The notes under the pieces were generated by a model. That model saw nothing but the letters and a program-made list of their open reading frames with translations, ran no database searches and had not been told where the DNA came from. Below are positions 11,948 through 35,487 of a DNA stretch of 35,487 nt, in pieces (position 1 is the first letter of the stretch; each line of letters starts with the position of its first letter). Source of the DNA: Candidatus Omnitrophota bacterium (GTDB lineage: Bacteria > Omnitrophota > Gorgyraeia > Gygaellales > Profunditerraquicolaceae); NCBI GenBank assembly GCA_016208765.1, contig JACQXK010000009.1, positions 182,255 through 217,741 of the forward strand, read 5' to 3'. Both the position numbers and the translations under genes were made by a program.

Positions 11948-11949
11948 AA

Positions 11950-16006: not shown

Positions 16007-16303
16007 ATGATTATGAAAATGATAATGGTTGTTTATAATGAAGCTTTGGATATTGAGGTAATGGAAATGTTAGGTCAGTGTGATGTCAAGTACTATACTA
16101 AACTAAATGGCGTTTTTGGAAGCGGCCAGGCATCTGGAGTCCATCTTGGTAATGACATCTGGCCGGGTAGGAATAATATTTTATATGCGGCTTGCAGCGA
16201 AGCGCAGGCAAAACAAATTCTGGATTGTGTAACGGAGTTGCGCAAAAAGCTGGCTAAAGAAGGTATCAAGGCGTTTGTTTTGCCGCTTGAGGAAATGAGT
16301 TAA
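16007..16303 (+). CDS. PII-like transporter-associated protein (PG0541 type)
   Basis: The 98-residue protein begins at the ATG one base after the permease stop; an upstream start inside the permease gene is unlikely. It has a small ferredoxin-like, PII-type pattern: MVVYNEALDIEVMEMLGQCD, then KLNGVFGSGQASGVHLGNDI and WPGRNNILYAACSEAQA. I match it to the PG0541-type proteins encoded beside RND pumps, where a GxGS-x-HLG-x-WP loop is characteristic. PII-like trimers often bind nucleotides or metals and touch a membrane transporter, so it may gate the pump. Its 3' end overlaps the convergent diguanylate cyclase gene by four bases. Confidence 0.75.
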   Translation: MIMKMIMVVYNEALDIEVMEMLGQCDVKYYTKLNGVFGSGQASGVHLGNDIWPGRNNILYAACSEAQAKQILDCVTELRKKLAKEGIKAFVLPLEEMS

Positions 16304-17985
16304 CTTGCGTCTTCCAGGGTGCAAACTCGGTTTCTCCCGGTTTTCTTTGCCATATACAGGCCTTCATCAGCGCGCTTGATAATGCTGTCAATGTCATCAC
16401 TGGGTTTAAACATTGCAACTCCCAAGCTCATTTCCACATGATGAATATTTTCACGGCTTCTTACCGGATTATTCTCTACCGCCCTTCGGATTTTTTCTGC
16501 AATACTCAAGCCAAACCTTAAAGACGCGCCTCTTAAAAGCACGATCATCTCTTCCCCGCCATAACGAGCAACAACATCAGTGGAACGCACAGAGTTTTTT
16601 ATTACATTAGCAGTCTCTTTAAGCACCATATCTCCTGTCTGATGGCCGTAGGTGTCATTAAAATTCTTAAAGTGGTCAACGTCTGCCATTAAAATGCAAA
16701 AGGTAGTATCTGGGTTTGATTTTGAGAGTATTATTTCTGTTTCAACAAGGATTTTGAAATAACTGATATTATAAAGCCCCGTAAGCCCGTCTGTAACCGA
16801 CATCTTGAAAAATGTCTGCTTTTCCATGGCAACTCGCAGGAAATTGTAGGTCCCGAAGAATAAATAATTCGTTATTAAGCCCACAAGAGGATAAGAGAAA
16901 TTGATCACAATCCTGTTCTGGAAAAGAATAAAGTTAATTGCAAAGTAAATCCCCATAATGGAAAATAGCTGGATGGTTTCTCTGAGCGGCCTTTCTCCTC
17001 GGACGATGAACAGCGGTGTTAAGCTTAAAATATAAAGGATGAATATATTTACCCACAAAGGAGGGTAATAAAAGAAATTTTTGTCAATAATATTGCTGAT
17101 GGCGGTAGCAAGCACTCCTACTCCCGGGTATACCGGTTCAAGCGGCATGGCCTTGATGTCAACTAAGCCTACTGCTCCGACTGCGACAATACAAAGGCTG
17201 TTTTTAAAATCGTTAATGTTTATTTTAGGGGTTATCTTGTCCTGCACATCTTTATAGGCTGCTAAAACATCCAAGAAACTGTAATGCTTGAAAGTTGTTC
17301 CCCATTTACCAAGCCAGTTTAAAAGCATGGTTTCTTTTGGAAGGAGTGGAATGCTCAGGTTTTGGATACCATTAGATAAAACAAGGCAATCCGGCTTGAC
17401 TGTTTTAATTTGCATTCCTAAATAATCCGCAGCTAATTTTAAGGCAATATGAGGGTAAGTTTTGCCGTTTGCGTTAAATATCAACGGGATCCTTCTTATT
17501 GCCCCATCGGCATCCGGCATAATGTTGATTACTCCGATGCCCCCTGCGTTATCAAGAAATTTCTTATAAGGAAGGATCGCTTTCTGATAGTCGTAAGGAA
17601 TTGTTGTAAATGCAAAGGGCAGATAAATATTCTTATTGGCTTCAAGCTCTCTTTCAAAAAGCGCATCTGCTTCTTCAGAAGCAGGTTCTGCCAGGATAAA
17701 ATCAAAATAAATGAATTTTGCCCCAAAACTTGTCAGCGCGCGCGCCATAGCCCCGTGCCAGGAGCGCTGCCATGGCCAATTGCCGATACTGGCCACATCT
17801 GCGTCGGTAATTTCTACGATGATAATTTTCTGGTTGGCGTGAGAGGTTTTCTTGAGGTTAAAGAATAAATCAAGGCTGGCTAATTCTAAGCGGTTAAAAA
17901 AACCTTTTTGGGAAACGAAGAAAATAGCCGAGGCAACTAAAATCGCGAAAATAGCGTTAAGAAGAAAAAACTTTTTTGATTTCAA
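16300..17985 (-). CDS. CHASE2-domain diguanylate cyclase (GGDEF)
   Basis: The 561-residue protein starts at a TTG (no nearby ATG fits). A membrane helix (7-25) leads to a periplasmic CHASE2 sensor (about 30-305, with VEITDADVASIGNWPWQRSW and FIYFDFILAEP). Three more helices follow (about 311-328, 343-358, 365-382), then a cytoplasmic GGDEF domain (395-561). It carries the metal ligand D435 in DVDHFK, the signature GGEEM at 476-480 and an inhibitory RxxD site (RSTD, 467-470) five residues before it. It should make c-di-GMP and be product-inhibited. The signature ends in Met instead of Phe, a mild deviation. It lies downstream of the FecR gene, beyond a hairpin that may lower its expression. 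Confidence 0.93.
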   Translation of the reverse strand: MKSKKFFLLNAIFAILVASAIFFVSQKGFFNRLELASLDLFFNLKKTSHANQKIIIVEITDADVASIGNWPWQRSWHGAMARALTSFGAKFIYFDFILAEPASEEADALFERELEANKNIYLPFAFTTIPYDYQKAILPYKKFLDNAGGIGVINIMPDADGAIRRIPLIFNANGKTYPHIALKLAADYLGMQIKTVKPDCLVLSNGIQNLSIPLLPKETMLLNWLGKWGTTFKHYSFLDVLAAYKDVQDKITPKININDFKNSLCIVAVGAVGLVDIKAMPLEPVYPGVGVLATAISNIIDKNFFYYPPLWVNIFILYILSLTPLFIVRGERPLRETIQLFSIMGIYFAINFILFQNRIVINFSYPLVGLITNYLFFGTYNFLRVAMEKQTFFKMSVTDGLTGLYNISYFKILVETEIILSKSNPDTTFCILMADVDHFKNFNDTYGHQTGDMVLKETANVIKNSVRSTDVVARYGGEEMIVLLRGASLRFGLSIAEKIRRAVENNPVRSRENIHHVEMSLGVAMFKPSDDIDSIIKRADEGLYMAKKTGRNRVCTLEDAS

Positions 17986-18067: not shown

Positions 18068-18535
18068 TTATTCCACCGCTTCTACTGCGACGGAAAATGT
18101 AGTTCCGCGCACCCCGACGATAGATGTTGGGGTCTTAACTTCAAATTTTGACTTTTCAGCATGAAGCTTTTTTGCTTTGATCAAAATTTCACCAAGCGCT
18201 AAATCAAGCAAGGTGCTTTGAGTTGCCTCAGCTTTATTTTCCAGTATTTCTGCTAATTGTAACTGGCTGTTTTCTTTGATTTCAACAGTAGCGGTTTGCG
18301 CTGCCCCGTCTAATTGCAGCATTGCCCACGAATCTTTCTTTGTGCGCAGGACGTCTCCCTGCTTTAAAACCATGTTCATTTTTGCAGGTATCCAGTCGGT
18401 TTGGCCGGATTTTATTTCAACCACACCTTTAAAATCAGAAAGTAAAGCTGTCCTTTGGCTTTCTTCGGCCAAGGCTATTGAAAACAAACCTAACACCAAG
18501 CCCATGATACACATAGATAAAATCAAACGCCTCAT
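18068..18535 (-). CDS. FecR-domain periplasmic protein
   Basis: The 155-residue protein has a signal peptide (1-23, ending SIALA) and a FecR domain: FKGVVEIKSGQTDWIPAKMN, then LKQGDVLRTKKDSWAMLQLD and the late motif VKTPTSIVGVRGTTFSV. I use the ATG at 18535 because AAGGAGG lies eight bases before it; a GTG three codons earlier overlaps that site. Stand-alone FecR proteins of this kind occur beside CHASE2 cyclases and surface exoproteins. Their ligand is not established. It is cotranscribed with the diguanylate cyclase, and its promoter is divergent from that of the pilin genes. Confidence 0.9.
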   Translation of the reverse strand: MRRLILSMCIMGLVLGLFSIALAEESQRTALLSDFKGVVEIKSGQTDWIPAKMNMVLKQGDVLRTKKDSWAMLQLDGAAQTATVEIKENSQLQLAEILENKAEATQSTLLDLALGEILIKAKKLHAEKSKFEVKTPTSIVGVRGTTFSVAVEAVE

Positions 18536-18577
18536 CTTGCTCACCTCCTTATAAAAATGGATTATATGCCTAATAAA

Positions 18578-18685: not shown

Positions 18686-19087
18686 ATGGTTAAAAATAAG
18701 AACGGCATAACCATATTATTGTTTATTTTAATTGTGATGATGTGCGTTATATTGGCTGCGGGGCTTTTAAATTTTGTTTCCAGTAGCCATAATTTTTCTG
18801 CGAAGATATTAAATTCTACGCGGGCATTTTATTTTGCCAATGCAGGGATACGCCGCGGGCTGTATGAGGTAAAAAACAATGCCAACCCCACCGGGTGGGA
18901 GCTCAACTGGGTGTTTTCCGGGCAGACGGTAATAATAACAATCACTCAGCCTGATCCTGCAAAACCAGATGAATACCAGATAAATTCCAGTTCAACAGTT
19001 AACTCTTATAATAAATCTTTAACCGCGCTGGTGCTAAAAGACGCGGTTTCTAATTCTGTGGAGCTGTTGCAATGGCAGGAAAATTAA
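18686..19087 (+). CDS. PilX-like minor pseudopilin
   Basis: The 133-residue protein has a short basic leader MVKNKNG followed by a membrane helix (ITILLFILIVMMCVILAAGL). This is a type IV prepilin-like start with Gly at the -1 position, but without Glu at +5. The middle has RAFYFANAGIRRGLYEVKN, typical of PilX-type proteins with an AxxAG-like helix. I choose the ATG at 18686; ATGs at 18656 and 18662 are also in frame, and the first lies five bases after the promoter -10. Minor pilins of this type sit at the tip of type IV pili or type II secretion pseudopili. The next gene overlaps by 16 bp. Confidence 0.75.
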   Translation: MVKNKNGITILLFILIVMMCVILAAGLLNFVSSSHNFSAKILNSTRAFYFANAGIRRGLYEVKNNANPTGWELNWVFSGQTVIITITQPDPAKPDEYQINSSSTVNSYNKSLTALVLKDAVSNSVELLQWQEN

Positions 19088-19491
19088 GAGGATTTTCATT
19101 ATTAGAGGTTTTAATAGCGGTAATGTTGATTAGCTCGGCAATATTGGGTTTGTCAGCTACTTTTATTTGGTCGCAGGGGCGTAATGTGGTTTCAGAGGGC
19201 AGGCTTCAGGCGCAGGGCTTTGCTAAGGATTCTTTGGAAGATATACTTGATCGCGATTATAGCAGTACATCGTTAGTTGTTGGCTCGTATACACATAATC
19301 CAAGTGAGCCGCAAGAATTTGATTTGCCGGCATCAGATTTAAGAGATAAACATGCCGGTAAAAGAGAATATGTGGTAAGTGATTTCCTGGAAGGTTCAAC
19401 CAATATAGGTAAACAAGTGGATGTAACAATTACATGGACAGAGCAGGGGCTGGCTAAGCAGGAAACCCTTTCCGGGTTAGTTATTCAATAA
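19072..19491 (+). CDS. PilV-like minor pseudopilin
   Basis: The 139-residue protein has a textbook prepilin N-terminus: leader MAGKLRG, then FSLLEVLIAVMLISSAILGL with Glu at +5. The soluble domain is small and beta-rich at the end (VDVTITWTEQGLAKQE), typical of PilV/PilW-type modification proteins. It starts inside the end of the previous gene with GGAG upstream, and its stop is directly followed by the next ATG. The three form one operon. No prepilin peptidase, ATPase or secretin gene lies in this window, so they must use a machine encoded elsewhere. Confidence 0.85.
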   Translation: MAGKLRGFSLLEVLIAVMLISSAILGLSATFIWSQGRNVVSEGRLQAQGFAKDSLEDILDRDYSSTSLVVGSYTHNPSEPQEFDLPASDLRDKHAGKREYVVSDFLEGSTNIGKQVDVTITWTEQGLAKQETLSGLVIQ

Positions 19492-22068: not shown

Positions 22069-22097
22069 TTGACAATTACGTTTTATAGTCGTAAAAT
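22069..22097 (+). promoter_or_regulatory. Promoter of the TpsB operon
   Basis: TTGACA at 22069-22074, a 17-bp spacer and TAAAAT at 22092-22097. The ATG at 22119 follows a short AT-rich leader with no Shine-Dalgarno sequence. Confidence 0.7.
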
Positions 22098-22118
22098 AAT
22101 TTAAATTAATATAATATT

Positions 22119-24233
22119 ATGAGAAAATCTTATCTATATTTATACAGTTTAATTTTAATCTTGATTTCTCTATCTGCAGCCTGCCTATTTATCGTAGAGC
22201 CTGTTTACGCCCAGTCACGTACAGACGTAGAAAGGGCTACGCGCGAGACAGACCTTTTGGGCCAGCAGGATGAAAAAATACAGGAAAAACTCCGGCAGGT
22301 TCCCAAGAAGCCCGCAGAGGTTGTTCCTAAAGACATACCTGTCCCGAAAGATGAAAAGAAATTTCTTGTAAAAAGAATTAATTTAGTTGGCTGCGAAAGT
22401 TTTCCCTCTTCGGATTTTGCGCCTATCCTTTCCAAATATGAAAATCAGGAACTTTCTCTTACAATGCTTGAGAACATAGGCAAAGAAATTGAGCGTGAAT
22501 ATCTAAGGCGGGGTATTATCTCGGCGGTGTTCCTGCCGGTGCAGGAAGTTAAAGAAGGCACAGTTACCATGCAGGTGGTTGAGGCAAGGATGGGTAAATT
22601 ACTCATCCAGGAACACAGATTCTTTAATGCAGAACGGCTCAAGTATTATTGGCGCGTTCCGGAGAATAAAATTATCCAGTATGATTTAATTTCCCGCAGT
22701 ATCCAGATGATGAACAAGAATCCCGACCGCACGGTAAAAGCGGCTTTGCGCGCCGGCACAAAACCCGGCACCACCGACGTAATCCTTACCGCGGACACGC
22801 ATTTTCCTCTTCACGCCACTGCTTCTTTTGATAATGAGGGTACGGTAGCTACGGGAAAATCCCGCATTGGTACAGGATTCAGGCACAATAATTTTCTCGG
22901 CCTTGATGATACGCTTTTGGGAGGGTACACTTTTGGGCAGGCATTTAACGGAGTTTACGCGTATCATTCTGTGCCGATTAGCCCGGTGGGGACGTCTTTA
23001 CTTTACGGTTTTAGCCGCAGTAAATCTGTTCCTAAAAAAGAGTTCGCCGCTTTTGGGCTTAATTCAGTAGCTTATAATTACAGCTGGTCTGTGCATCAGG
23101 ATATTTATAAGAAAGATGAATATTTGGGAGAAATGTTTTTTGGTTTTGATGCCAAGGATAAAACCACCCGTGAAAATGCAGGGGTGGATAACCGCGACCG
23201 TTTGCGTATCTTTAGCCTCGGCGGCAACTTTATTAAACGCGGGTTTACCAGCGTAACTTCTTTCGCGCCTGAATTTGCGCAAGGCGTAGATGCTTTTGGA
23301 GCATCCAGTAGAGGAAATCCTCTTGCTTCAAGAAATGCAAAATCAAATTTCTCAAAGTTTAATCTTGGCATACAACATAAAAAAATACTTCCTTTGAACC
23401 TGCAAGGTAACCTAAAATTTAAATCTCAGGTATCATCTACCAAGCTTACTCCGCAGGAAGAATTTAGCTTGGGCGGGATAGATTCGGTAAGAGGGTATCC
23501 TGCCGGTGATTATCTTGCGGATAATGCTTTGCTTGCAAGCGCGGAATTACTTGTCCCTGCTTTTTTTGTTCCGTCTGGACTGCGCCTTCCTTATGCAGAA
23601 GCGCCGTTTAAGGATCAAACCACGCTCGTGCTCTTTACTGATTATGGCTGGGGAGACCGCAGGGGCGCATTGGCTACGGATAAAAAAGAGGTAAACTTTG
23701 TGGGCGTGGGGGCGGGTTTGAGGTTTCGTCTTTATAATCAGGCGCTTTTGCGCCTTGAATGGGGTTTTCCAGTCGGTGATCCAAGCATCACCGAGGCTGG
23801 GCACTCGCGCTTTCATTTCTCAGTGGATTTGCAGGAAAAACTTCCGGAAGAGGTTGAGCGTATTCAGAAAATGCGCCAGGAAGAGAATATCAAGAAATGG
23901 GCGTGGGATATTCTAAATAAAGAGTATCTCCGCTTTGACAGCCATTTAAGAATGAATATTCTAAACAATTTTACTTTGGCCAAGAAGCTTTCCTCAGAAG
24001 GTAAATCAAAAGAGGCAAAAGAATATTATGAAAAAAGCGTAGACACTGCGCAGTCTTTGTATAATCAGGCCGAGGAGTATGTGCGTTCTTCTTTTGCCCA
24101 TGAGCAGGAATTAAGGGATTTAAATAAGCAGGCGCAAGAAAAATATAAAGCAGGCAATATATCTGAAGCAAAGCAACTTTGGCAGAAAATAATTGACGAG
24201 GCAAATCCAAAGCAATTAGTATTGGAATATTAA
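22119..24233 (+). CDS. Two-partner secretion porin (TpsB/FhaC/ShlB family) with C-terminal helical extension
   Basis: The 704-residue protein has a signal peptide (1-31, PVYAQ), a linker, and a POTRA domain (about 82-157, KFLVKRINLVGCESFP to VVEARMGKL). A 16-stranded barrel of the ShlB type follows (about 160-570). The family-defining loop-6 motif VRGY lies at 457-460 in GGIDSVRGYPAGDY. Most TpsB proteins end at the last barrel strand. Here about 130 residues follow it, highly helical and TPR-like (NFTLAKKLSSEGKSKEAKEY and AQEKYKAGNISEAKQLWQKI). That tail should face the periplasm. TpsB proteins export a large TpsA exoprotein. The candidate partner is the giant protein on the other strand. 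It is the first gene of an operon with the protease and the coiled-coil gene. Confidence 0.9.
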   Translation: MRKSYLYLYSLILILISLSAACLFIVEPVYAQSRTDVERATRETDLLGQQDEKIQEKLRQVPKKPAEVVPKDIPVPKDEKKFLVKRINLVGCESFPSSDFAPILSKYENQELSLTMLENIGKEIEREYLRRGIISAVFLPVQEVKEGTVTMQVVEARMGKLLIQEHRFFNAERLKYYWRVPENKIIQYDLISRSIQMMNKNPDRTVKAALRAGTKPGTTDVILTADTHFPLHATASFDNEGTVATGKSRIGTGFRHNNFLGLDDTLLGGYTFGQAFNGVYAYHSVPISPVGTSLLYGFSRSKSVPKKEFAAFGLNSVAYNYSWSVHQDIYKKDEYLGEMFFGFDAKDKTTRENAGVDNRDRLRIFSLGGNFIKRGFTSVTSFAPEFAQGVDAFGASSRGNPLASRNAKSNFSKFNLGIQHKKILPLNLQGNLKFKSQVSSTKLTPQEEFSLGGIDSVRGYPAGDYLADNALLASAELLVPAFFVPSGLRLPYAEAPFKDQTTLVLFTDYGWGDRRGALATDKKEVNFVGVGAGLRFRLYNQALLRLEWGFPVGDPSITEAGHSRFHFSVDLQEKLPEEVERIQKMRQEENIKKWAWDILNKEYLRFDSHLRMNILNNFTLAKKLSSEGKSKEAKEYYEKSVDTAQSLYNQAEEYVRSSFAHEQELRDLNKQAQEKYKAGNISEAKQLWQKIIDEANPKQLVLEY

Positions 24234-24234
24234 A

Positions 24235-24762
24235 ATGAAAAGAATTTTTCTTTTGGCAACGCTCGCAGTATTGGTGTTTTCGGGTATTTCTTCGGCCTCT
24301 AATTTAGATGCTAATTGTTTAGGCATACATTCTCCTGGGCAATTGGCTGGTTGGCTTAAAAATGAGTTTAAATACCGTGCTGAAATGCCTGACAAGTGGC
24401 AGAGTGCGGAAGAGACCTTTAAATTAAAGAAAGGTGATTGCGAAGATTTTGCCATTATCAGCCAGAAGATTCTCGGTGATTTGGGGATCAAGGCGCAGAT
24501 ATTAGTAATTAAATTTAAGGGTATCGTGCAATCCCACGCAGTGTGTATTTTTAAACAAGACCGGTATTATAATTTTATTTCAAATCAGAAAATAGTTTAT
24601 ACAAAAGCAGTGTCCGTAAAAGAGGCGATCAGCGAGTGTTATCCTGATTGGGAGAGAATTATTTATACTGACGCCGGAAAACTGGTTAAGAAAATTGCGG
24701 CAAGGACTAAAGAGAATATCGCTTCGCCGGAATTAATCAACAGTTCTTTAAAGGAGGAGTAA
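24235..24762 (+). CDS. Periplasmic transglutaminase-like cysteine protease (LapG-like)
   Basis: The 175-residue protein has a signal peptide (1-21) and a compact papain-like transglutaminase fold. C69 in KKGDCEDFAI and H101 in QSHAVCIF form the catalytic pair. The usual third residue, Asp, would fall near N113 in YYNFISN, so it may be Asn. The sequence around the Cys (DKWQSAEETFKLKKGDCEDF) resembles the bacterial transglutaminase-like cysteine proteinases such as LapG, which cleave surface adhesins in the periplasm. At 175 residues it is shorter than LapG (about 200-240). It lies between the TpsB porin and the coiled-coil gene with almost no spacing. A transglutaminase or amidase activity is possible too. 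Confidence 0.78.
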   Translation: MKRIFLLATLAVLVFSGISSASNLDANCLGIHSPGQLAGWLKNEFKYRAEMPDKWQSAEETFKLKKGDCEDFAIISQKILGDLGIKAQILVIKFKGIVQSHAVCIFKQDRYYNFISNQKIVYTKAVSVKEAISECYPDWERIIYTDAGKLVKKIAARTKENIASPELINSSLKEE

Positions 24763-25701
24763 ATGAAGGACAGTTTGCGTTTGGCTTTATCGGCCGTATT
24801 CATTAGTTTATTTTTATCCGTAATAAGCTCAGTCAGAGCAGACGAACTACCTGCTGCCGGGCAGGGGGCAAAGTCACAGGAGGCCCCGGCTGTCTCCGAC
24901 GAGGTTCAGGCAAAAGAAACTGAAACTGTGCAACAGGATGTTATTGAAAAATCTATGCCAAGCTACTCTTTAAATTTAAAACAATTGATTAAAGAAGCCC
25001 AGGTAAATATCAAAAAGGTTGATGCGCAAATCAAGGAGCAGGAAGTTTTGAAACGTAATCAGGAAAGAGAAGCCAAGGTAAAGGAGCTCTTTTCTAAAGG
25101 CAACGATCTTTATGGGAATGGTTTGCTGCAGGAGGCGCGCGCAGCCTGGCAGGAGGCAATCGGGATTACTAAAGATCCGGAGATGTCAGGTTATATAAAA
25201 GAGGCTGAGAAAAAGGCCCTGGAAGAGGAGCGTGCGAAAGAAGAAGAACAAGCCCGTCTTGAAAAACAAAAACGCGATGAAGAAGCAGCTGCCAGGAAAA
25301 AAGCTGCAGAAGAGAAAAAACAGGCAGCTCTTGAAGCCAAGAGAAAAACTCAGGCTGAGGCAGAAGCAAAACGCCAGCAAGATTTAGCGCAGAAGGAACA
25401 GGAGCGCCAGCAGAAAGCAGAGCAGATAAAAATAGAAAAGCAAAAACGCGATGAAGAAGCAGCTGCTAAGAAACAAGCCGCAGAGGAGAAAAAGCAGTCA
25501 GCGCTTGAGGCAAAGAATAGAGCCCGGGTTGAAGCCGAAGCAAGGCGTCAGGAAGAATTGAATCGCCGGGAAGCTGAGCGTAAGGCAAAAGCAGAGCAGG
25601 CTAAAATTGAAAAAGAAAGAAAACAGGAAGAATGTCGTATAAAGAAGGAAAAGGCTCGTCTTGAAAAAGAAAGAAAAAAAGAAGAGGCTACTTCTCGATA
25701 A
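24763..25701 (+). CDS. TolA-like periplasmic coiled-coil repeat protein
   Basis: The 312-residue protein follows directly on the protease gene, with AAAGGAGGAG upstream. A signal peptide (1-26, SSVRADE) is followed by a linker, a helical hairpin that reads like one TPR unit (VKELFSKGNDLYGNGLLQEA, then RAAWQEAIGI), and a long charged helix. From about residue 150 it is an Ala/Glu/Lys/Arg coiled coil, with a 58-residue unit (EKQKRDEEAAA) repeated twice at 174-bp spacing. This composition is typical of TolA or TonB-like periplasmic spanners. The TPR unit resembles that at the TpsB C-terminus. I infer that it may bridge the envelope or bind TpsB. Function is unproven. Confidence 0.78.
   Translation: MKDSLRLALSAVFISLFLSVISSVRADELPAAGQGAKSQEAPAVSDEVQAKETETVQQDVIEKSMPSYSLNLKQLIKEAQVNIKKVDAQIKEQEVLKRNQEREAKVKELFSKGNDLYGNGLLQEARAAWQEAIGITKDPEMSGYIKEAEKKALEEERAKEEEQARLEKQKRDEEAAARKKAAEEKKQAALEAKRKTQAEAEAKRQQDLAQKEQERQQKAEQIKIEKQKRDEEAAAKKQAAEEKKQSALEAKNRARVEAEARRQEELNRREAERKAKAEQAKIEKERKQEECRIKKEKARLEKERKKEEATSR
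25267..25466 (+). repeat. Direct repeats in the coiled-coil gene
   Basis: 26 bases (25267-25292) recur at 25441-25466, and similar sequence continues around them. The spacing is 174 bp, equal to 58 codons, so the coiled coil grew by in-frame duplication. Confidence 0.7.
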
Positions 25702-27019
25702 TCAAGTTTTCGCCTTGTTTTAAAATGGTTTTGTTTTTATAATCCGCCCCTTTACTCTCGTTATAAGGCGAAACATCAAACTCTCCCTTAATAGCAGTAA
25801 TCTTAGACCTGTATTTAGCAGGTATATAGCTCTTGGCGTATTTATTTGTTTGCTGCTCTAATTTAATGATATCAAATCCGTAACCAGCCTGTTTTTCTTT
25901 CTCAGCCTCTGGTATGGTTCCTTCTTCTGTTGCACTTTGCCCTGAAGTTAAGAGTTTTTCTTCTGCATACTTAGGCCCCTCTTCATCACCTTCTTCATAA
26001 TTGGTATTATCAAAGCCGTATTGGTTATATTCTACCTCTGATACTAAATCGCTTCCGCTTGCCATGGCAACATCATCAGGCAGGCCTTGTCCCGGGCCGG
26101 GGGTTTCTGCGCTACCTATACCATAATTATCATCAGCTTGTCTGGTTGCCTCATCCCTTTGTCCTTCTGTTAATCCTTCTCCTTCAGAAGAGCTTGCCAC
26201 TGGGAACCAGTTAAGGGTATTTCCTGAGTCGGTAGATGTAAGCGGGTTAATCGTAGTTCCGTTAATGTTATTTGAATCCTTAACATCCACAAAGGAGACA
26301 TTTCTTAATAAGCCTAAGCCTTGCGGATTAATCTTAGCCTGTGTTCCTGTAGTAGTACTTCTTATCTTGATTAAATTTCCTGCAGCTCCGGTTAAAGTAA
26401 GCTGATTAATAATGATTGTAGTTTTACCTGCTTCAAAATCTAATTCCTTGCCTGCTGTGGCGCAGGTTAAGTTATAGTAGGTATTATCTCCCATGATAAC
26501 TGCAGTAGCAGCACCATAGTATTCAGTGGTTCCTGAATTAGCATCAAAGCTTACTCCGGTTAAAGTCTGTGAGCCTATTAATCTTAATGTGCCGTCATTA
26601 CTAAGTGTTCCTGTCATGGTTAAATCGTAAGTATCCAAATCAAGAACAGCATTAGTATTGATAGTCAGATCATTAACAGTAACAGCCAAAGTAAGTAGTG
26701 GGCTATTAGCCACATTAGCGATCACTATATTATCCGTAATATTAGGCACATAACCAAGATCCCAGTTAGCTGCTGTATTCCAGGTGGTATCAGTAGAGCC
26801 ATCCCAGGTGATAGTAGTAGCAGAGAAGATCCAGTTAGTGTTATTGCCACTATCCTTTGAAGAAGCAGCAGTAATGGAATTAGTAGCTGTTGAATCTTGT
26901 ACATCTACAAAACTCACCGACTCAGTACCGGCATCATTAATATACCAGACAGCTCCAGGAGTTGAGCTTCTTAAACTGATCAGGTTACCAGCAGCTCCGG
27001 TTAAGGTCTCAATAAGCCA
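25688..27019 (-). CDS. Giant beta-helical exoprotein, C-terminal piece
   Basis: This is the last frame of the giant gene, separated from the middle piece by a frameshift. It is open from 27019; an internal ATG-like start at 26917 is not needed. It begins in the middle of a repeat (GAAGNLISLRSSTPGAVWYI) and holds the WNTAANWDLGYVPNITDN cassette. The beta-rich repeats then end (about 26210), and an acidic, disordered stretch (SSSEGEGLTEGQRDEATRQA) follows. The last 60 residues are folded-looking (KYRSKITAIKGEFDVSPYNE, then KNKTILKQGENLIIEK) and recall a FecR-like beta unit. There is no membrane helix or LPXTG at the end. The stop overlaps the end of the convergent coiled-coil gene. Confidence 0.8.
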   Translation of the reverse strand, partial: WLIETLTGAAGNLISLRSSTPGAVWYINDAGTESVSFVDVQDSTATNSITAASSKDSGNNTNWIFSATTITWDGSTDTTWNTAANWDLGYVPNITDNIVIANVANSPLLTLAVTVNDLTINTNAVLDLDTYDLTMTGTLSNDGTLRLIGSQTLTGVSFDANSGTTEYYGAATAVIMGDNTYYNLTCATAGKELDFEAGKTTIIINQLTLTGAAGNLIKIRSTTTGTQAKINPQGLGLLRNVSFVDVKDSNNINGTTINPLTSTDSGNTLNWFPVASSSEGEGLTEGQRDEATRQADDNYGIGSAETPGPGQGLPDDVAMASGSDLVSEVEYNQYGFDNTNYEEGDEEGPKYAEEKLLTSGQSATEEGTIPEAEKEKQAGYGFDIIKLEQQTNKYAKSYIPAKYRSKITAIKGEFDVSPYNESKGADYKNKTILKQGENLIIEK

Positions 27020-30000
27020 TTAACTCTTTGAGTTGTGCCTGCTGTAAAGATTAAGGACTTACCTGCTGTGGTGCAGGTTAAATTATTAAATGTAGTATTT
27101 CCTGAGAGAGTAGAGCTTTGAGTAACATCATTAAACGTAACTGTTCCTGAATTATGATTAAATGTGCCTGCACTGTGGTTAAAGTTACCTGAGATAGCCA
27201 TATTACCTGGAGCAACAAAAGTTCCGTTAGATTGAATAAAGTCATTGTAAATAGTTAAGTCACTTGCTGCGGTAAAACTTCCTATGCCTGAGATAGTTAA
27301 ATCGTAGTAGTTATTACCACCGCTAAGGCTTGTATAATTTCCGTTACCGGTATATTCAGCTATACCTGAATCAGTATCATTGACAAAGCCGGTTAAGGTT
27401 TCACTACCAATTAATTTAAGAATACCATTATTAACAAATGTAGAGCCGAAGGTAATGTTACTGCCGTTTAGATCAACAGTCTTACCACTTGAAATAGTTA
27501 CCTTAGGTAACGTAGTTGTTCCGGTAATTGTAGATGTTCCAGCACCGTCAAATATAACCCTACCTGTTCCTGTAACATTACCTGTGTTATAGCTATTGCT
27601 TACATCTCCTGCAAGATTAACATCAAAGCCTGCGGTGGCAAGGATAACTGAATTTGAGTTGGCCTGTCTTGTGCCTTCTGCGCTAAATGTAGCTGGAGCA
27701 GACTGGTTGTTGTATTCAGTCAAGATCCAGCCGGAAGAGCGGGAGGTATTAGACACGCGGGTTTCATCAATAAGGCCATCAAAGTAGGCATTGGAAAACA
27801 TGCCAATGTAGATGCCGTCAACCGTTGAATTACTGTTACTTCCTGCTACCGCAGCTAAAGCTGAACCATTCTTATAAAACGTTAAATTAGTGCCATCAAA
27901 CACACATACAAATTGTGTCCATGCGCTGTTTACATAACTAGTAGGTGTGCTTAGCGACATTGAGCCATTATCTCTAACAAAACCAAACACAACTCCTCCT
28001 AAGGGGTCGTATTTGAGTAAAGTATAAGCTACGTTGCTGGAATTAGGAGACCTTTCAGAATATAATCCATAAACCATCCCTTGGCTATCCGCATATACCC
28101 ACATCTCAACAGTAGAAGCGCCGGAGTTGGCAATTAAGGCAGTAGTTCCTGCGGTAACATACCCTGAGCTTCCGTTTAATGTAATAGCATAACCAATTAA
28201 TCCGCCTGAACCTTGAGTAGTGCCTCCTACTGTAGTCCCATCACGATTCCCAGTTGAATCATCCACAGTGCCTGAGCCTGCTGCATCATCATAGTGCCAG
28301 ACTGCCTGATAACCGCTACTCCATACCCCTGCAACATTTTCCTGGCTGGTAGTGATGCTTGAATTAGCAAAGTACATATAAATAGAAGTATCGCTTGAGC
28401 TTGATACTGTAGGCACCTTTACCCAGGCAATGTACTGGCCTGTTGCTGCATCATAGTGTTCAATTTCAAAGTCAAGCACTGTGCCTGAAGCATCCTTAAA
28501 GATAATATCATAGCCATTAGCATTGGTAACATAACCGCCACTACCTGTGCCTGCTAAATCAGCATCAGTAACAGAGAAGAGGAAAGGATAATTAGTTAAA
28601 TTCTCCCCTACCTTGGTATGGTCTATGGTAATGGACTTATAATAACCATACCCAGCACCCTGCCCAAAGCTAAGTGTGCCGTTAATATCAAGATTAGCAG
28701 TTAAGGTAATGGTTCCTCCTGAGAGCATTAAATTATAATAAGTATTTCCTGCAGCCATTCCTGTATAAGGGCCTACACCGTAATACTCAACTGTTCCTGA
28801 ATCAGGATCATTGCTAAAGTTAGTTAATGTTTCAGAGCCTTGTAACCTTAATTTACCAGTATTAGAGAAGGCCGAGGTAGCAGTAAGGATTAAATTCTTG
28901 CCATTTAAATCCAATACTCCTGAAGCATTGGAAATAGTTAAATTGCCATTAACTGTTAAATTAGCTGCTAAGCTGTAATTACCAGCATTAGAGATGACTA
29001 AATCATAATAAGTGTTTCCTGCTTTTAAACTTGTATAAGTAGATGTGCCATAGTATTCCACACTACCTGAATTGCTGTCATTGGTAAAGCCGGTTAAGGT
29101 CTCACTACCAACTAATCTAAGAGTGCCATCATTACTAAATGTCCCGGTAAGAGTTAAATTATTTGCATTTAAGTCAAGCACAGCACCGGAGTTAATAGTC
29201 AAGTTATTAATATTTACTGCTGAGCCTAAAATTGGGTCATTGGTTACATTGGCAATGACGACACTATCGCCTGTTTCAGGAACAAGATTGTAATTCCAGT
29301 TTGCAGCGGTGTTCCAGTCAGTTGAGCTTGACCCATCCCATGTCCAGATAGTGGCAAATATCCAATGCGTATTATTTCCTGAATCAATGGAATTCCTTGC
29401 AATGATATCCGTAGCATTAGTATTGTTTGAATCTTGCACATCTACATATCTGACGCTTCTTGTCCCTTGCGGGTCAATATACCAATCACTACCAGTAGAA
29501 GAGCTTCTTAAAATAACTTCATTGCCGGATGTTCCGGTTAAGGTAAATGTACCAATGATAATTTGGGCCGTACCAACACCAGCGGTAAATGTCAGCTGTT
29601 TATTAGCAGTAGTACAGGTAAAGTTATTGAATGTGCTTGAACCGGAGATAGTTGAAACCTTACTTGCATCAGTAAAAGTTACTGTACCGTTATTATGATT
29701 AAATGTTCCTGTCTTTGACCAGTTACCGGAGACATTTATATTGCCGCTGGGGGCAGTGAGAACACCGGTGATAGAAACATTATTAAAGCTGTTTTCGCTT
29801 GAGCCGGAGATTGCGGTCGCGCCGTCAAAGGTAACTGTGGAAGTGCCGGCAGTAAATGTTCCGTTATTGATCCAGTTGCCTGCGATATTGATTGTTGCAG
29901 CGCTAGAGCAGCTTAAGAATGAGCCGATTGTAATGTCGCCGTCTACATCCAGGCTACCCGTGGAAGTGATAATAATACTATCATTGAATGTTGCATTTCC

Positions 30001-30680
30001 AGTGATATTAAGGGATCCAGTGGAGATATTAATACTACCATTGGTCACTACATTTTCCGTAACATTAAGCGTATAAGTGCGGATTTGTAAGCTACCGCTG
30101 GTGTTAAGTGTTCCGGTAACATTAGTGGTACCGGCAAGATAGAAAATAGTGCCAGTTCCGGAGTCATTAAAAGTTAAATCATGATATGTGCCGGCTAATA
30201 CGTCAACATTGGTTGCAACTGCGGTGTATTGCCAAAGCGAGCCGTCATTGTTGGTCATATTGGTGATTTGTAAACCAAGCCCTCCCATGTCGCTATAGAT
30301 AATTTGTCCTGAGTTGATCAGGTTTTGAATTATAATTATTGCTGAGGCATAATAGCTTGCTCCGGAACTGATATTGAGAGTGTCTGTAACAGTTAATCCC
30401 GCCGAGCCACCACCACTGATATCCAGAATGCCATTAGTTATATATATGTTGTTTGCCTGTAAGGAGGAATTGCTTGTCATCTCTAATGTGCCTCCTCCGG
30501 TAATATAGAGCGTATTAAAAGCATCATCTCCGTGCCAAATTGTAGAAGTCCCGCTGCCGTTAAAAGTAACTGTTCCTCCATTGGCGTCAAAGCTACCGGT
30601 ATTAGTCCAGTTGCCCGCAACATTCATATTTCCCGCAGGTGCGGTAAGCGAGCCGGTGATGGCAATATTATAATTGTGCC
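27001..30680 (-). CDS. Giant beta-helical exoprotein, middle piece with DUF2341 and LamG modules
   Basis: This 1,200-residue frame opens at about 30680 (the first Met is at 30627) and ends at TAA 27001-27003. It is mostly beta-strand repeats of about 30-45 residues with N-V-S-G-N-W and G-T-V-T-F-D-G rungs. In the middle (about 27680-28660) lie a DUF2341 domain (YYKSITIDHTKVGENLTNYP) and a LamG/Concanavalin-type domain (YAITLNGSSGYVTAGTT, then GLIDETRVSNTSRSSGWILT). These are carbohydrate-binding modules found in surface proteins. The WNTAANWNYNLVPETGDSVV cassette at about 29220-29340 recurs in the C-terminal piece. The ends are set by the frameshifts on each side. Confidence 0.85.
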
Positions 30681-33600
30681 GTCAAAGGTAACAGTGGATG
30701 CTTCAGCAGTGAAAGTGCCATTATTGATCCAGTTGCCTGCGATATTAATTGATGCATTGTTAGTGCAGGTAAGTGTCCCTACTGTAAGATCACCATTAAC
30801 ATCTAATGTCCCGGTTGAAATAGTAATTGTGTCATTGTTTACTACGTCTTCTGTAACATTAAGAGTATTATCACTGATAATTATTGTACCTGCTGTATTA
30901 GTTAAGGTACCAGTAACATTAACTATGTCGTTAAGATAATAAGAAGCTGAACCGCCAGCATCATTAAAGGTCAAATCATGGTAAGTTCCGACTCCGCTAA
31001 ATACGATTACATCTCCGGAAGTCGCAGTATATGTCCAGAGAGAACCGTCGTTATTGGTGAAGGTTGTGATACTAAGGTTAGAGCCATCACTTTCGCAGGT
31101 GACGTTTCCTGAATTATCTAAGGTTGTAATGGTTTGTGTTCCTGTTCCGGTATAATAATCTGCTCCAGTAGAAATGGTAAATGTGCCGTTGACAGTTAAG
31201 CCCAAATCATTAGTTGCCATATCTAATGTGCCATTAGAGTTAGTAAGGTTATTGTTTACGCCAAGAGCATTTGTTGTTACCTGTAAAATACCCGCTCCGG
31301 AGTGGGTAAGGTTGTAGAAACTTGCTCCACCGGTAGCTAAGGTTTGTGTTATTCCTGCAGCCGCATCAAAGACAACAGTTCCGTTATTGGGGGTAAATGT
31401 TCCGCCTGTCCTTGACCAGTTGCCAGATACGTACATTGTTCCCGAAGGAGCGGTAAGAGTGCCACCAGAAATAAGAGTGCCACCAGAAATTGTTACATCG
31501 CCGTTTACATCCACGACTCCTGTTGAGCCGGTGAATGTTCCGCTTGAAATAGTCAATGTGCCATTAACTTCTACCTCACCGCTTGAACAGGTAAATGTGC
31601 CTGCATTGCCGCTGGTATTTGAAACAGTTAATCCGCCGTTAAAAGTCTGAGTTCCAGTGCTGGCTAGGTAGGTGGCGTAATATCCGTCAATAGTAGTAAG
31701 GCCAGTTACAGTAACATCATGTCCATTGGCATCAAAATAACTTCTGTTAATATTCAATGTTCCTTCTATTGTAAGATTACTTGTAAGCTGAAGCATTCCA
31801 GTGCTCCAGAAATCGTAATATCTATAAACAATTACATTGTAGAAATTTTGTCCTCCGCTGTTTAAAGTAAAAGTTCCGCTGTAAGACATGTCATAAAAAT
31901 TTACTGTGCCGTTATTATGATTAAATGTGCCTCCGGTTCTGGCCCAGTTACCACGTACATACATAGTGGAAGAAGGAGCAGTAAGAATTCCACTTGTGAT
32001 GGAAACATTGTTATCTACATACACTAAGCCGGTTGATCCGGTAAATGTGCCTCCTGAGACCGTCAGGTAACTAAATGTCTGGGTTGCAGTCTTGGCTTGA
32101 TATTCCCCGCCTGAAATTTCCATTGTTCCAGGCACATTAACCACTAAATCATTTGCATCAAATGTTCCATTAGAGTTGATAAGGTTATTGCTTACGCCAA
32201 GAGCATTTGTTGTTACCTGTAAAATACCCGCTCCGGAGTGGGTAAGGTTGTAGAAGGATTGCCCTCCAGAAGTTATAGTTTGCGTGCCATCTGTTTTGTC
32301 AAATTCAACTGTTCCTGATGTGATTGTAATAGTTCCACTTGTGTTTGTCCAGTTTCCTGAAACATACATTGTTCCCGAAGGAGTAGTGAGATAGCCTCCT
32401 GAGATTGTTACATCGCCGTTTACATCTACAATGCCGGTTGAGCCGACAAAGTTGCCTATACTACCACCGCTCGTGCTAACTGTTAATCCGCCGTTAAGAG
32501 TTTGTGTTCCTGACTTGGCTAAATAAGTAGCCCGGTAACCTGCTACTGTAGTAAGGCCGGTAACTGTAACATCATATCCATTGGCATCAAAATAAGATTG
32601 AGTAATATTAAACACGCCAAGCACAGTTAAGTTATTGTTGATGAGTTTTACTGAACCATATCCTCCTGCCCAGGCGTCTTTTTGAATAGTAAGATTATAA
32701 AAACTTTGTCCGCCACTATCTAAGGTGTATTCTGCATATCCTCCAGAATAACAAATTACAGTACCATTATTATGATTAAATGTGCCGCCTGTAACTGACC
32801 AGTTTCCATAATAGCAGGCATAAAAAGTTCCTGTAGATGGAGCAGTAAAAGTACCGCTGGTCATAGAGAAACCGTATGTAATGGTAATATCGCCTGTTGA
32901 ACCGGTAAATGTTCCTCCGGATATAGTAAGGGCAAGGAAGTTTTGTGTTCCTTCTTTAGCTAAATATTCTCCTCCGGAAATAGTAACGTTACCATATATA
33001 GTAACTGCTTTTCCATTGGCATCAAATATCCCGTTAGAATTAGTTAGTGTTCCTAACCATTCACTAGTCAAGTTTGATGTTAGTTGTAACGTGCTATCTC
33101 CGGAGTGGACAAGGTTGTAGAAGCCGCCTCCGTAACAGGTCTGAGTGGTGCCGGTTTCTCCATCAAAAGTGACAGTAGCATTGTTTGTATAAAATATTCC
33201 ACCTGTAACCGACCAGTTGCCAGATACGGTAAAACTGCCAGAAGTGGCAACAAGAATACCACTAGTAATGCTTACATTGCCATTGACATCAATGATACCG
33301 GTTGAACCGACGAATCCTGGGGTATAGCTTTCATGACTTGAAACTGTGAGTCCGCCATTAAAGGTATTTGTTCCTGCCTTAGCGTAATAAGCTGTATATT
33401 GCCCGCTTACAGTAGCAAGTCCGTTAACAGTTACATCTAAATCATTGGCATCAAATCCGCCTATTGTAATATTAAATGTATTTTCTACTGTTAGTGGGTT
33501 GTTGGTAAGCTGGACTTTATTCGTGCCCCAGATATTGGCATATTTTTCCATGTTAAGGTTATAAAAGCTTTGATTTCCACTGTCAAGTGTAACGGTTATC

Positions 33601-35487
33601 CCCGCCGGGTGAAATTCATACTCTGAATAGAATGTAACTGTTCCATCATTATGATTAAATGTGCCTCCGGTAACCGACCAGTTGCCGTAGACTGTAAATG
33701 TGCCGCTAGGGGCAGTAAGGGTGCCTGAAGTAAGAGAGACGTTGCCGTTTGAGGTAACATCTCCGGTTGAGCCGGTAAATGTGCCTCCTGAGACAGTCAG
33801 CCCACCGCTAAATGTTTGGGTTCCGCTTTGAGCCAGGTATTCACCGCCGGAAACTGTAGTCAACCCGCTTACATTAACTGTTAAGTCGCTTGCATCAAAT
33901 GTGCCGCCAGAAAGATTAAAAGCTCCGTTTATATTCAGATTGTCATTGGGATAAAATATGGTTGTGTCTGAAGGCGATAATGTCAGGTTGTTATATTGAA
34001 TTGCGGCAATATAGGTATCTTCTCCGTTATCAGGCGCGTATACTACGGTAGAATTTACAGTAGTAAGTGTGCCATCTCCCGTAATCACATCTCCTGCACC
34101 GCTTAGTGTCAGCGTCCTGTCTGTGATATCAAGGAAGAAGCTTTCGTCTATCCATATGGTAGTAGCCGTAATATTGGTCGTAGGGGTAATGTATGCTTGG
34201 ATCCAGACCGCACCTAAATCCTGACCTGTGGCTGTATTGTCTGTCCAGCCCTGCGTATCCCATAATTCAAAGTAAAAAACTCCCGATGTTGATTTGTTTA
34301 TTCGGCCGTTAACCTCTATCAAAAGATCGCCATCAATATAGACGCTAGCATCACAGCTGGCAAGGTCAAGTATTCCTTGAGTTATGGTAAGCGAACCGCC
34401 GACGTCTAAAGACCCATCTATCTGCAGGCTTGTGTCATCAGTATTGATAATAACGTTATTAAGATAGAGCTCATCGGGATTATAGAAGTATTGATCGCTT
34501 GAGCCGTTAAATATTACGGTTGTGCTACCGGGATCTATCCAGCTACCACTGTCAAGGGTGAAGTCGCCCGATATTCTGATTGTTGAGGTATAGCCGCCGG
34601 CCTCTATTGAACCACCAGAAGAAACATAAATAGCGTTGGCGCTCATATCGTAGCCATTTAAATCAAGGGAGGCGTTGGCTTCTATATAGAGGGTGCCTGT
34701 AATGGAGTTAATATCGGTCATATCACCGGCCAGGTAATAGAATGTCGCGGATGAGGGCTCAAAAATAAGATTACAGTACGGCAACGCCGCTATGGTTGTG
34801 TCAGAGCCAGATCCGGTATATACGACTGTTGAATCTGTAGTGGTAAGGTTGCCGGATACAACCAGAGGAGTTCCTGTGCCGGTCAAGATTAGGTAAATAC
34901 CGGATATATCCAGGGTATCGTCGCCACCGATACTAATAGAAGTAGCTTTTATAGCGTACGGAGTTGACACAACTTTACCTGTACCGTCGATGACTACTGC
35001 TCCAAGATTCTGAATAACATCATACGTCTGGTCACTCCATACAACAGCATCGCTGCCATTGAAAGTGAATGTACCAGTACCTTTGGTGATTGACGGGGGG
35101 TCATCAACATATCCGCTCGGAGTAATATACAAATTCCCTGCAAGCTCAACATCCGGATTATTGGAAGATAAGTCTAGATTTCCATCATAGATACTTAGAT
35201 CGCCATCAATCCCTAAGATGCCGGAAGAGATGATGACATTGTCATTGTCGGTAATTCCGCCGTTCTGTAGGATAAGATTGAAGAAACTTTGCCCGCCGTG
35301 GGTAATGATTTGATCTTCGCTCCCATCAAAGGTAACGGTGCCACTGCCTGCGTCAAAAGTTCCTCCTGTAGCATCCCAGTTGCCTGAGACGTTGATATTG
35401 TTTGCTTCAGCTTCTAAAGTACCGTTTAAATCAAGATCGGCCAGCGTAACATTAGCACCCGGCCTGTAAGTCTTGCCTGAATCAACC
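30624..35487 (-). CDS. Giant beta-helical exoprotein, N-terminal piece (partial at window edge)
   Basis: The frame is open from the right window edge (35487) to the TGA at 30624, about 1,620 codons. The chain consists of beta-strand repeats with T-F-N-G-G-L-T-V-S, G-T-F-T-G-S-T-G-x-V-x-V-N-G-x-V and A-P-S-G-T-M-Y-V-S-G-N-W motifs, typical of filamentous-haemagglutinin-like or autotransporter-type exoproteins. The real start, signal peptide and any TPS secretion domain lie right of the window. Near-identical repeat units 0.86-0.94 kb apart lie around 31.2, 32.2 and 33.1 kb. The last codons (IIILPSPARLPHLREI) are an out-of-frame tail after the frameshift at 30663-30680. It is probably the partner of the TpsB porin. 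Confidence 0.87.
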   Translation of the reverse strand, partial: VDSGKTYRPGANVTLADLDLNGTLEAEANNINVSGNWDATGGTFDAGSGTVTFDGSEDQIITHGGQSFFNLILQNGGITDNDNVIISSGILGIDGDLSIYDGNLDLSSNNPDVELAGNLYITPSGYVDDPPSITKGTGTFTFNGSDAVVWSDQTYDVIQNLGAVVIDGTGKVVSTPYAIKATSISIGGDDTLDISGIYLILTGTGTPLVVSGNLTTTDSTVVYTGSGSDTTIAALPYCNLIFEPSSATFYYLAGDMTDINSITGTLYIEANASLDLNGYDMSANAIYVSSGGSIEAGGYTSTIRISGDFTLDSGSWIDPGSTTVIFNGSSDQYFYNPDELYLNNVIINTDDTSLQIDGSLDVGGSLTITQGILDLASCDASVYIDGDLLIEVNGRINKSTSGVFYFELWDTQGWTDNTATGQDLGAVWIQAYITPTTNITATTIWIDESFFLDITDRTLTLSGAGDVITGDGTLTTVNSTVVYAPDNGEDTYIAAIQYNNLTLSPSDTTIFYPNDNLNINGAFNLSGGTFDASDLTVNVSGLTTVSGGEYLAQSGTQTFSGGLTVSGGTFTGSTGDVTSNGNVSLTSGTLTAPSGTFTVYGNWSVTGGTFNHNDGTVTFYSEYEFHPAGITVTLDSGNQSFYNLNMEKYANIWGTNKVQLTNNPLTVENTFNITIGGFDANDLDVTVNGLATVSGQYTAYYAKAGTNTFNGGLTVSSHESYTPGFVGSTGIIDVNGNVSITSGILVATSGSFTVSGNWSVTGGIFYTNNATVTFDGETGTTQTCYGGGFYNLVHSGDSTLQLTSNLTSEWLGTLTNSNGIFDANGKAVTIYGNVTISGGEYLAKEGTQNFLALTISGGTFTGSTGDITITYGFSMTSGTFTAPSTGTFYACYYGNWSVTGGTFNHNNGTVICYSGGYAEYTLDSGGQSFYNLTIQKDAWAGGYGSVKLINNNLTVLGVFNITQSYFDANGYDVTVTGLTTVAGYRATYLAKSGTQTLNGGLTVSTSGGSIGNFVGSTGIVDVNGDVTISGGYLTTPSGTMYVSGNWTNTSGTITITSGTVEFDKTDGTQTITSGGQSFYNLTHSGAGILQVTTNALGVSNNLINSNGTFDANDLVVNVPGTMEISGGEYQAKTATQTFSYLTVSGGTFTGSTGLVYVDNNVSITSGILTAPSSTMYVRGNWARTGGTFNHNNGTVNFYDMSYSGTFTLNSGGQNFYNVIVYRYYDFWSTGMLQLTSNLTIEGTLNINRSYFDANGHDVTVTGLTTIDGYYATYLASTGTQTFNGGLTVSNTSGNAGTFTCSSGEVEVNGTLTISSGTFTGSTGVVDVNGDVTISGGTLISGGTLTAPSGTMYVSGNWSRTGGTFTPNNGTVVFDAAAGITQTLATGGASFYNLTHSGAGILQVTTNALGVNNNLTNSNGTLDMATNDLGLTVNGTFTISTGADYYTGTGTQTITTLDNSGNVTCESDGSNLSITTFTNNDGSLWTYTATSGDVIVFSGVGTYHDLTFNDAGGSASYYLNDIVNVTGTLTNTAGTIIISDNTLNVTEDVVNNDTITISTGTLDVNGDLTVGTLTCTNNASINIAGNWINNGTFTAEASTVTFDGTIIILPSPARLPHLREI
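31256..32255. repeat. Long direct repeat units inside the giant gene
   Basis: Positions 31256-31319 and 32192-32255 are identical over 64 bases (936 bp apart), with more diverged flanks and a third, weaker copy near 33070-33120. A second family is near 31690-31740, 32545-32595 and 33400-33450, spaced about 860 bp. The units encode superimposable beta-helix segments, so they show recent duplication inside the gene. Confidence 0.75.

What the first reader, a model, noticed from the sequence alone, without database searches (positions are those of the whole stretch)
22069..25701. A TpsB porin, a LapG-like protease and a coiled-coil protein in one operon beside a giant exoprotein and a c-di-GMP synthase
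Sequence shows: TpsB with POTRA and VRGY, directly followed by a secreted transglutaminase-like protein with C69/H101 in GDCEDFA and SHAVCIF, then a TolA-like coiled coil. A giant beta-helical exoprotein lies convergently, and a CHASE2-GGDEF enzyme with FecR lies 4 kb upstream. Known: in Pseudomonas, CdrA/CdrB (TpsA/TpsB) and LapA are released by LapG when c-di-GMP is low. Inference: this is a new version of a c-di-GMP-controlled surface adhesin, with the protease built into the TPS operon. Against it: no LapD-like receptor is in view, no TAAG-type LapG site is seen in the giant protein, and the protease's third catalytic residue looks like Asn.
Basis: partly seen in the sequence, partly recalled or inferred. 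Interest (0 to 1): 0.7.

Follow-up and report, generated by a model that had tools for sequence, protein, structure and literature searches.

The report
Adhesin-export operon tied to c-di-GMP synthase
An uncultured Omnitrophota bacterium carries an export system for one giant surface protein, next to a secreted protease-like enzyme and a sensor that should make the sticking signal c-di-GMP; the giant protein's tail looks like the piece missing from that sensor's partner protein, which suggests the cell may sense whether the surface protein has left.

Summary
22119-24233 is a TpsB porin (two POTRAs, 16-strand barrel) with an unusual four-helix C-terminal domain; 24235-24762 is a secreted transglutaminase-fold protein; 24763-25701 is a secreted coiled-coil/TPR-like protein. 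The convergent exoprotein is the partner TpsA: its TPS domain sits at the end of another contig that overlaps this one exactly by 141 bp, and the genome has one TpsB and one TPS domain.
The Lap reading is partly supported. The protease's best solved relatives include LapG and it keeps the GDCED calcium/cysteine motif, but it scores below LapG/C93 cut-offs, has Cys-His-Ser instead of Cys-His-Asp, and LapD is absent. It adjoins TpsB in five genomes of four genera; 12 of 14 genomes with close relatives of it carry the extended TpsB.
The most recurrent c-di-GMP link is the FecR plus CHASE2-GGDEF pair, which recurs beside TpsB or TpsA in several families. These FecR proteins stop short of the domain's last strands, and the TpsA C-terminal tail resembles those strands. 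Best model: a two-partner adhesin whose retained tail is read by FecR/CHASE2-GGDEF, with an optional LapG-like release protease. Protease substrate and tail docking are inferred.

The parts
16300..17985 (-). CHASE2-GGDEF diguanylate cyclase candidate: 4 hydrophobic segments, periplasmic CHASE2, signature GGEEM with RSTD I-site
   Evidence: CHASE2 1.2e-49, GGDEF 7.5e-42; GGEEM (GGEEL once) conserved in the subfamily
18068..18544 (-). mini-FecR: secreted 158-aa FecR domain that stops about 8 residues after GTTF (profile about 1-82 of 97)
   Evidence: FecR 3.9e-11; only FecR domain in the genome; 20 such relatives aligned
22119..24233 (+). TpsB transporter: two POTRAs, 16 beta-strands
   Evidence: ShlB/POTRA_2 hits; only ShlB match in the genome; AF2 model pLDDT 80 with 16 barrel strands
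23841..24230 (+). C-terminal four-helix extension of TpsB (aa 575-704), expected on the periplasmic side
   Evidence: AF2 helices 575-604, 609-626, 630-677, 681-694, mostly at pLDDT 85-93; found in at least 17 Omnitrophota genomes
24235..24762 (+). secreted transglutaminase-fold cysteine protease candidate; Cys69, His101, Ser116; calcium-type Asp68/Glu70
   Evidence: profile hits to LapG 4fgo 5e-6 and 4u65 1.4e-5; model pLDDT 81.5, Foldseek CPR-C4, LapG, vasohibin; residues
24763..25701 (+). secreted coiled-coil protein with a TPR-like motif resembling the TpsB extension
   Evidence: no Pfam hit; homologue directly downstream of most extended TpsB genes
25688..35487 (-). TpsA, C-terminal part of a giant exoprotein; continues off the window to G000:C79:220517 and starts at C5:24600
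   Evidence: 141-bp exact overlap of contig ends C5/C79; only TPS domain above the cut-off in the genome, on C5; frame changes and N gap
25691..25861 (-). TpsA C-terminal tail, KYRTxVIVxEGxVxVxPYDExG..LxxGQ family, FecR C-terminal-like
   Evidence: tail family in 20 of 368 genomes, often ending at the stop codon; hhalign to FecR C-terminal strands prob 91, E 1.2e-6

Best explanation
This is a two-partner (type Vb) secretion system for one giant beta-helical surface protein, physically linked to a c-di-GMP-making sensor. TpsB exports TpsA from its N-terminal TPS domain. The C-terminus leaves last and most likely stays in the periplasm, tethering TpsA. There the TpsA tail, which resembles the last strands of a FecR domain, meets the periplasmic mini-FecR, which lacks those strands. 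Mini-FecR is encoded with a membrane CHASE2-GGDEF enzyme that senses the periplasm, so tail docking would tell the cell that the adhesin is in place and set c-di-GMP. The TpsB helical extension and the coiled-coil protein form periplasmic scaffolding. The transglutaminase-fold protein would be a calcium-dependent protease that cuts the tether and frees TpsA, as LapG does for LapA and CdrA. Shown by sequence: the parts, their likely secretion signals, conserved neighbourhoods and co-occurrence. Inferred: tail docking, signal direction, proteolysis and its substrate.
For: One TpsB and one TPS domain in the genome, the latter joined to the window's exoprotein by a 141-bp contig overlap. FecR and/or CHASE2-GGDEF adjoin TpsB or TpsA in many genomes of several families. 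Mini-FecRs picked by a FecR search alone again lie beside TpsB/TpsA in G044, G037, G241, G096 and G323. Tail and mini-FecR co-occur in 15 of 20 tail genomes and lie close together on one contig in nine loci. The tail resembles the strands that mini-FecR lacks: profile-profile prob 91, score 29.7 against a shuffled-column maximum of 10.6; mini-FecR aligns to columns 12-134 and the tail to 134-152 of full FecR. The protease candidate is next to TpsB in G000, G001, G377, G079 and G139; 12 of 14 genomes with close relatives of it have the extended TpsB. LapG is among its best solved relatives by profile and fold. Precedents: LapG releases CdrA (PMC4694147); D. vulgaris DvhG works with a receptor that is not LapD (PMC13090378); an operon with FecR and CHASE2 proteins is tied to biofilm in Burkholderia (PMC5192318).
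Against: No activity, interaction or structure of a complex is shown. The window's own tail scores weakly on its own against FecR (0.5 bits); the resemblance rests on the family. The tail has a weaker second match to the FecR N-terminus. The protease is absent from most TPS loci, and most of its relatives are not beside TpsB. No LapG-type cleavage site lies near the TpsA end. TpsA in this assembly is broken by two frame changes and a gap. Some mini-FecR loci (G176, G064, G080) have no TPS gene in view. Co-occurrence counts are not corrected for ancestry.
Confidence: 0.5

Rival explanations
1. A new-style Lap/Cdr system: the 24235 protein is a true LapG-like protease that cuts TpsA when c-di-GMP is low, and the FecR/CHASE2-GGDEF pair only supplies c-di-GMP.
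For: LapG is the top profile hit in PDB and among the top fold hits; GDCED calcium motif; linkage to TpsB. CdrA is a TPS adhesin cut by LapG (PMC4694147).
Against: Below C93 and LapG cut-offs, Ser for Asp, no LapD, no TAAG-type site near the tail, and the protease is missing from most such loci.
Confidence: 0.25
2. The transglutaminase-fold protein is an envelope or peptidoglycan enzyme, or a house-keeping secreted peptidase of Omnitrophota, that sits in the TPS operon in one genus by chance.
For: Paralogues elsewhere in the same genome and in most carriers are unlinked to TPS; DUF553/Transglut_core score better than C93.
Against: Adjacency to TpsB in five genomes of four genera in different arrangements, and strong co-occurrence with the extended TpsB.
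Confidence: 0.3
3. The tail and mini-FecR are unrelated; the tail is a generic C-terminal beta cap and the FecR/CHASE2-GGDEF pair is a general envelope sensor that regulates TPS expression through c-di-GMP.
For: FecR+CHASE2 pairs exist without TPS, as in Burkholderia (PMC5192318) and G176. The tail-FecR similarity covers only about 36 columns.
Against: Tail and mini-FecR co-occur and adjoin; the tail matches the part that mini-FecR lacks; the score rose as sequences were added.
Confidence: 0.35

Closest known systems
CdrA/CdrB two-partner adhesin with LapG (Pseudomonas aeruginosa)
   Same: TPS adhesin, periplasmic transglutaminase-fold protease, c-di-GMP link (PMC4694147)
   Different: No LapD, no C-terminal Cys (cysteine hook, from own knowledge) in TpsA, FecR-like tail instead, protease encoded inside the TpsB operon, Cys-His-Ser residues
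LapA/LapG/LapD and DvhA/DvhG/DvhD
   Same: Surface adhesin, calcium-type GDCED protease; DvhD shows that the receptor can differ (PMC13090378)
   Different: Those adhesins leave by type I secretion; here TPS export and a FecR/CHASE2-GGDEF pair, with no c-di-GMP receptor found
FecR-LysM + CHASE2 histidine kinase BiofilmReg operon (Burkholderia)
   Same: A periplasmic FecR protein encoded with a CHASE2 membrane sensor, tied to biofilm (PMC5192318)
   Different: Output is GGDEF rather than kinase; FecR is truncated; genes sit with a TPS system
Vasohibin / CPR-C4 cysteine proteases
   Same: Transglutaminase-like fold; vasohibins have a Cys-His-Ser triad (PMC4866520); best fold matches
   Different: Secreted bacterial protein with a GDCED calcium-type motif in a TPS operon

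Membership tests
Two-partner secretion (type Vb) | TpsB: POTRA domains plus 16-strand barrel | tested here: met
   ShlB 7.6e-31, POTRA_2 7.8e-14; 16 strands in the model
Two-partner secretion (type Vb) | TpsA with N-terminal TPS domain | tested here: met
   PF05860 1.8e-19 on C5, joined by a 141-bp overlap
LapG / Peptidase_C93 (BTLCP) | Family score above curated cut-off | tested here: not met
   C93 21.8 vs 27; LapG 18.6 vs 320
LapG / Peptidase_C93 (BTLCP) | Cys-His-Asp triad | tested here: not met
   Cys and His invariant, third position Ser116 in the TPS-linked clade, Thr in one
LapG / Peptidase_C93 (BTLCP) | Calcium-binding Asp/Glu flanking the Cys (GDCED) | tested here: met
   D68 in 47/47, E70 in 42/47 with D in the rest; role of these residues in DvhG from PMC13090378; calcium binding itself not tested
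LapG / Peptidase_C93 (BTLCP) | LapD partner receptor | tested here: not met
   No PF16448 over cut-off in 384 genomes
LapG / Peptidase_C93 (BTLCP) | [TAP]AAG site in the adhesin near its retained end | tested here: not met
   Only AAAG and GAAG inside the beta-helical body, none in the tail
LapG / Peptidase_C93 (BTLCP) | Proteolytic activity on the adhesin | not testable with these tools
   needs biochemistry
Vasohibin-type Cys-His-Ser protease | Ser/Thr at third catalytic position in a transglutaminase-like fold | tested here: met
   Ser116 by alignment, fold hits; geometry of the triad not measured
Diguanylate cyclase | Intact GG(D/E)EF signature | tested here: inconclusive
   GGEEM: both glycines and both acidic residues kept, last residue Met; GGEEF in the G176, G037 and G044 relatives
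FecR domain | Full-length domain (97 profile positions) | tested here: not met
   Stops at about position 82, as in all TpsB-linked relatives; most of the best other FecRs of the phylum reach 94-97

The most novel reading that the evidence does not exclude
A split FecR fold: the exported adhesin TpsA carries the last strands of a FecR domain at its C-terminus and a separate periplasmic mini-FecR carries the rest. Their joining reports to CHASE2-GGDEF that the adhesin is docked, and a Cys-His-Ser LapG-like protease can cut the joint. This would be a secretion-completion sensor built on strand complementation and read out as c-di-GMP.
Probability: 0.3. Interest if true: 0.82.

Novelty: new variant of a known kind. 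Interest (0 to 1): 0.6.

Why it matters
Giant surface proteins are common in Omnitrophota and are thought to serve attachment or predation, but their roles are poorly understood (PMC10066038), and a library search for 'Omnitrophota' with 'two-partner secretion' found no paper. This locus gives an exporter, a candidate retention tail and a c-di-GMP sensor for one of them, and a testable route by which a cell could know whether its adhesin is deployed. It would extend c-di-GMP control of adhesins beyond the Lap system.

Tried and rejected
LapD search (PF16448): nothing over cut-off in own genome or phylum. LapG cleavage motif in TpsA: only GAAG/AAAG in the beta-helical body. Pfam on tails alone: no FecR hit, so the tail-FecR link rests on profile comparisons made here. 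Protease relatives in plasmids: none. Solo protease copies: some lie next to PilZ or GGDEF genes, but this was not tested against chance. CdrA-like cysteine hook: no Cys in the last 150 residues of the window's TpsA. The idea that the exoprotein lacks a TPS domain was dropped once contig C5 was found to overlap C79.
Full report
What is there. The window lies in a 2.41-Mb assembly whose relatives are Omnitrophota metagenome-assembled genomes. Three genes run with at most 1 bp between them: TpsB 22119-24233, a transglutaminase-fold protein 24235-24762 and a coiled-coil protein 24763-25701. TpsB matches ShlB (7.6e-31) and POTRA_2 (7.8e-14). An AF2 model built on 16 relatives (pLDDT 80) shows two POTRAs, 16 barrel strands ending at residue 571 and four confident helices, 575-694. 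Known TpsB proteins end at the barrel with their C-terminus in the periplasm (own knowledge), so the extra helices should face the periplasm. The TpsB, protease, coiled-coil and FecR proteins each have a hydrophobic segment near the N-terminus that looks like a secretion signal.

The exoprotein is TpsA. It runs from 25688 on the minus strand off the window to the end of contig C79. Contig C5 ends in an outward-running gene with a signal-like segment and a TPS domain (PF05860), and the last 141 bp of C5 equal the first 141 bp of C79 read inward. This is the only TPS domain above the cut-off, and TpsB is the only ShlB match in the genome, so the pairing is close to certain. The frame changes at about 26.97 kb and 30.63 kb and at a 12-N gap (C79:217742-217753). 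These may be assembly errors in a repetitive gene; relatives such as G104 (1398 aa) and G274 (1343 aa) have uninterrupted TpsA proteins with a TPS domain and a tail.

The c-di-GMP module. On the other side of TpsB lie mini-FecR (18068-18544) and CHASE2-GGDEF (16300-17985), both on the minus strand. Three pilin-like genes (18641-21888) separate them from TpsB here but not in the same-genus genome G001, where the order is TpsA end, coiled coil, protease, TpsB, FecR, GGDEF, RND pump. A survey of 384 Omnitrophota genomes for TpsB, with neighbourhoods of the best hits, shows FecR and usually CHASE2-GGDEF beside TpsB in many of them (for example G151, G024, G186, G104, G293, G084, G317, G274), and FecR alone in others. 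The coiled-coil gene follows most extended TpsB genes. The cyclase signature is GGEEM (GGEEL in G104), with an RxxD inhibition site, conserved across the subfamily; the acidic catalytic positions are kept, so activity is likely but not shown.

The FecR proteins are short. All TpsB-linked ones end 0-4 residues after the model end near GTTF, at profile position about 82 of 97, while the best-scoring FecRs elsewhere in the phylum mostly reach 94-97. Mini-FecRs taken from the FecR search, without regard to TpsB, again lie next to TpsB or TpsA in G044, G037, G241, G096 and G323, and not in G176, G064 and G080 (G323). G064 and G080 do carry tail-bearing proteins elsewhere.

The tail. Many TpsA proteins of these loci end in a shared motif, KYRTxVIVxEGxVxVxPYDExG...LxxGQ, often reaching the stop codon. 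It is found in 20 of 368 genomes. It resembles the strands that follow GTxF in full FecR proteins. Profile-profile comparison of 32 tails with 17 such segments gives probability 91 and E 1.2e-6 for that single comparison; 60 column-shuffled controls reached a score of at most 10.6 against 29.7. Against whole FecR domains, mini-FecR covers columns 12-134 and the tail aligns best at 134-152. The support is moderate: individual tails range from 20 bits (G096) to no signal (the window's own, 0.5 bits), Pfam finds no FecR in the tails, and there is a weaker match to the FecR N-terminus. Known mini-FecR genomes and tail genomes overlap in 15 (of 24 and 20). Where the TpsA end was in hand, loci without the tail had no mini-FecR (Fisher p 0.001). 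These counts ignore shared ancestry, and the mini-FecR list is not exhaustive.

The protease candidate. Eleven sequences, the window's own and ten relatives, give a profile whose two best PDB matches are LapG (4fgo 5.1e-6, 4u65 1.4e-5). The AF2 model (pLDDT 81.5) matches CPR-C4, LapG and vasohibins. Asp68, Cys69, Asp71 and His101 are invariant in 47 sequences, Glu70 is Glu or Asp, and the position of the LapG Asp is Ser in this clade and mostly Asp in outer clades. Vasohibins are known to use Cys-His-Ser (PMC4866520), and the acidic residues flanking the Cys are needed for the calcium-dependent activity of DvhG (PMC13090378). So an active calcium-dependent protease is plausible, but it is not a LapG by score, triad or partner. 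It adjoins TpsB in G000 and G001 (TpsB-protease-coiled coil), G377 (TpsB-coiled coil-protease), and G079 and G139 (protease upstream of TpsB-TpsA; in G139 about 1.9 kb away). Of 14 genomes with close relatives, 12 have the extended TpsB, one of these judged from a contig-cut gene; Fisher p is about 1e-15 over 384 genomes, and the within-family product is 8e-6. Most copies are unlinked, so the protease may also have other substrates.

Model and confidence. A two-partner system for one giant adhesin-like protein, linked to a FecR/CHASE2-GGDEF c-di-GMP module, is well supported (about 0.85 in my judgement). That the TpsA tail stays in the periplasm and is read by mini-FecR is inference with sequence support (about 0.3-0.4). 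That the protease frees TpsA is inference from LapG and linkage (about 0.35).

Noticed in passing
window 18641-21888 (+): Two pseudopilin-like ORFs and a 798-aa protein with a type IV pilin-like N-terminus on a long repetitive body, inserted between mini-FecR and TpsB; absent at that place in the same-genus genome G001.
   Followed up: partly
L192 11784-12458: Secreted protein in G203 made of three tail-like (FecR C-terminal-like) repeats, right after mini-FecR and CHASE2-GGDEF, with no TPS gene in view.
   Followed up: partly
L188 1533-2171; L190 12060-12701: Secreted 212-213 aa proteins with a FecR C-terminal-like end, upstream of CHASE2-GGDEF, mini-FecR and TpsB in two same-order genomes.
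   Followed up: partly
L013 10513; L033 1915-2793; L149 10857; L015 8938; L153 2179: Solo copies of the protease family lie next to PilZ or GGDEF genes in several Omnitrophota, a possible general c-di-GMP link; not tested against chance.
   Followed up: partly
window 10188-16005 (+): MarR regulator, TolC, membrane-fusion protein and RND pump next to the cyclase; the RND pump and fusion protein are also beside it in G001.
   Followed up: no
window 3553-5112 (+): Large serine recombinase (Resolvase, Recombinase, zinc ribbon) near the window start, a possible mobile-element trace.
   Followed up: no
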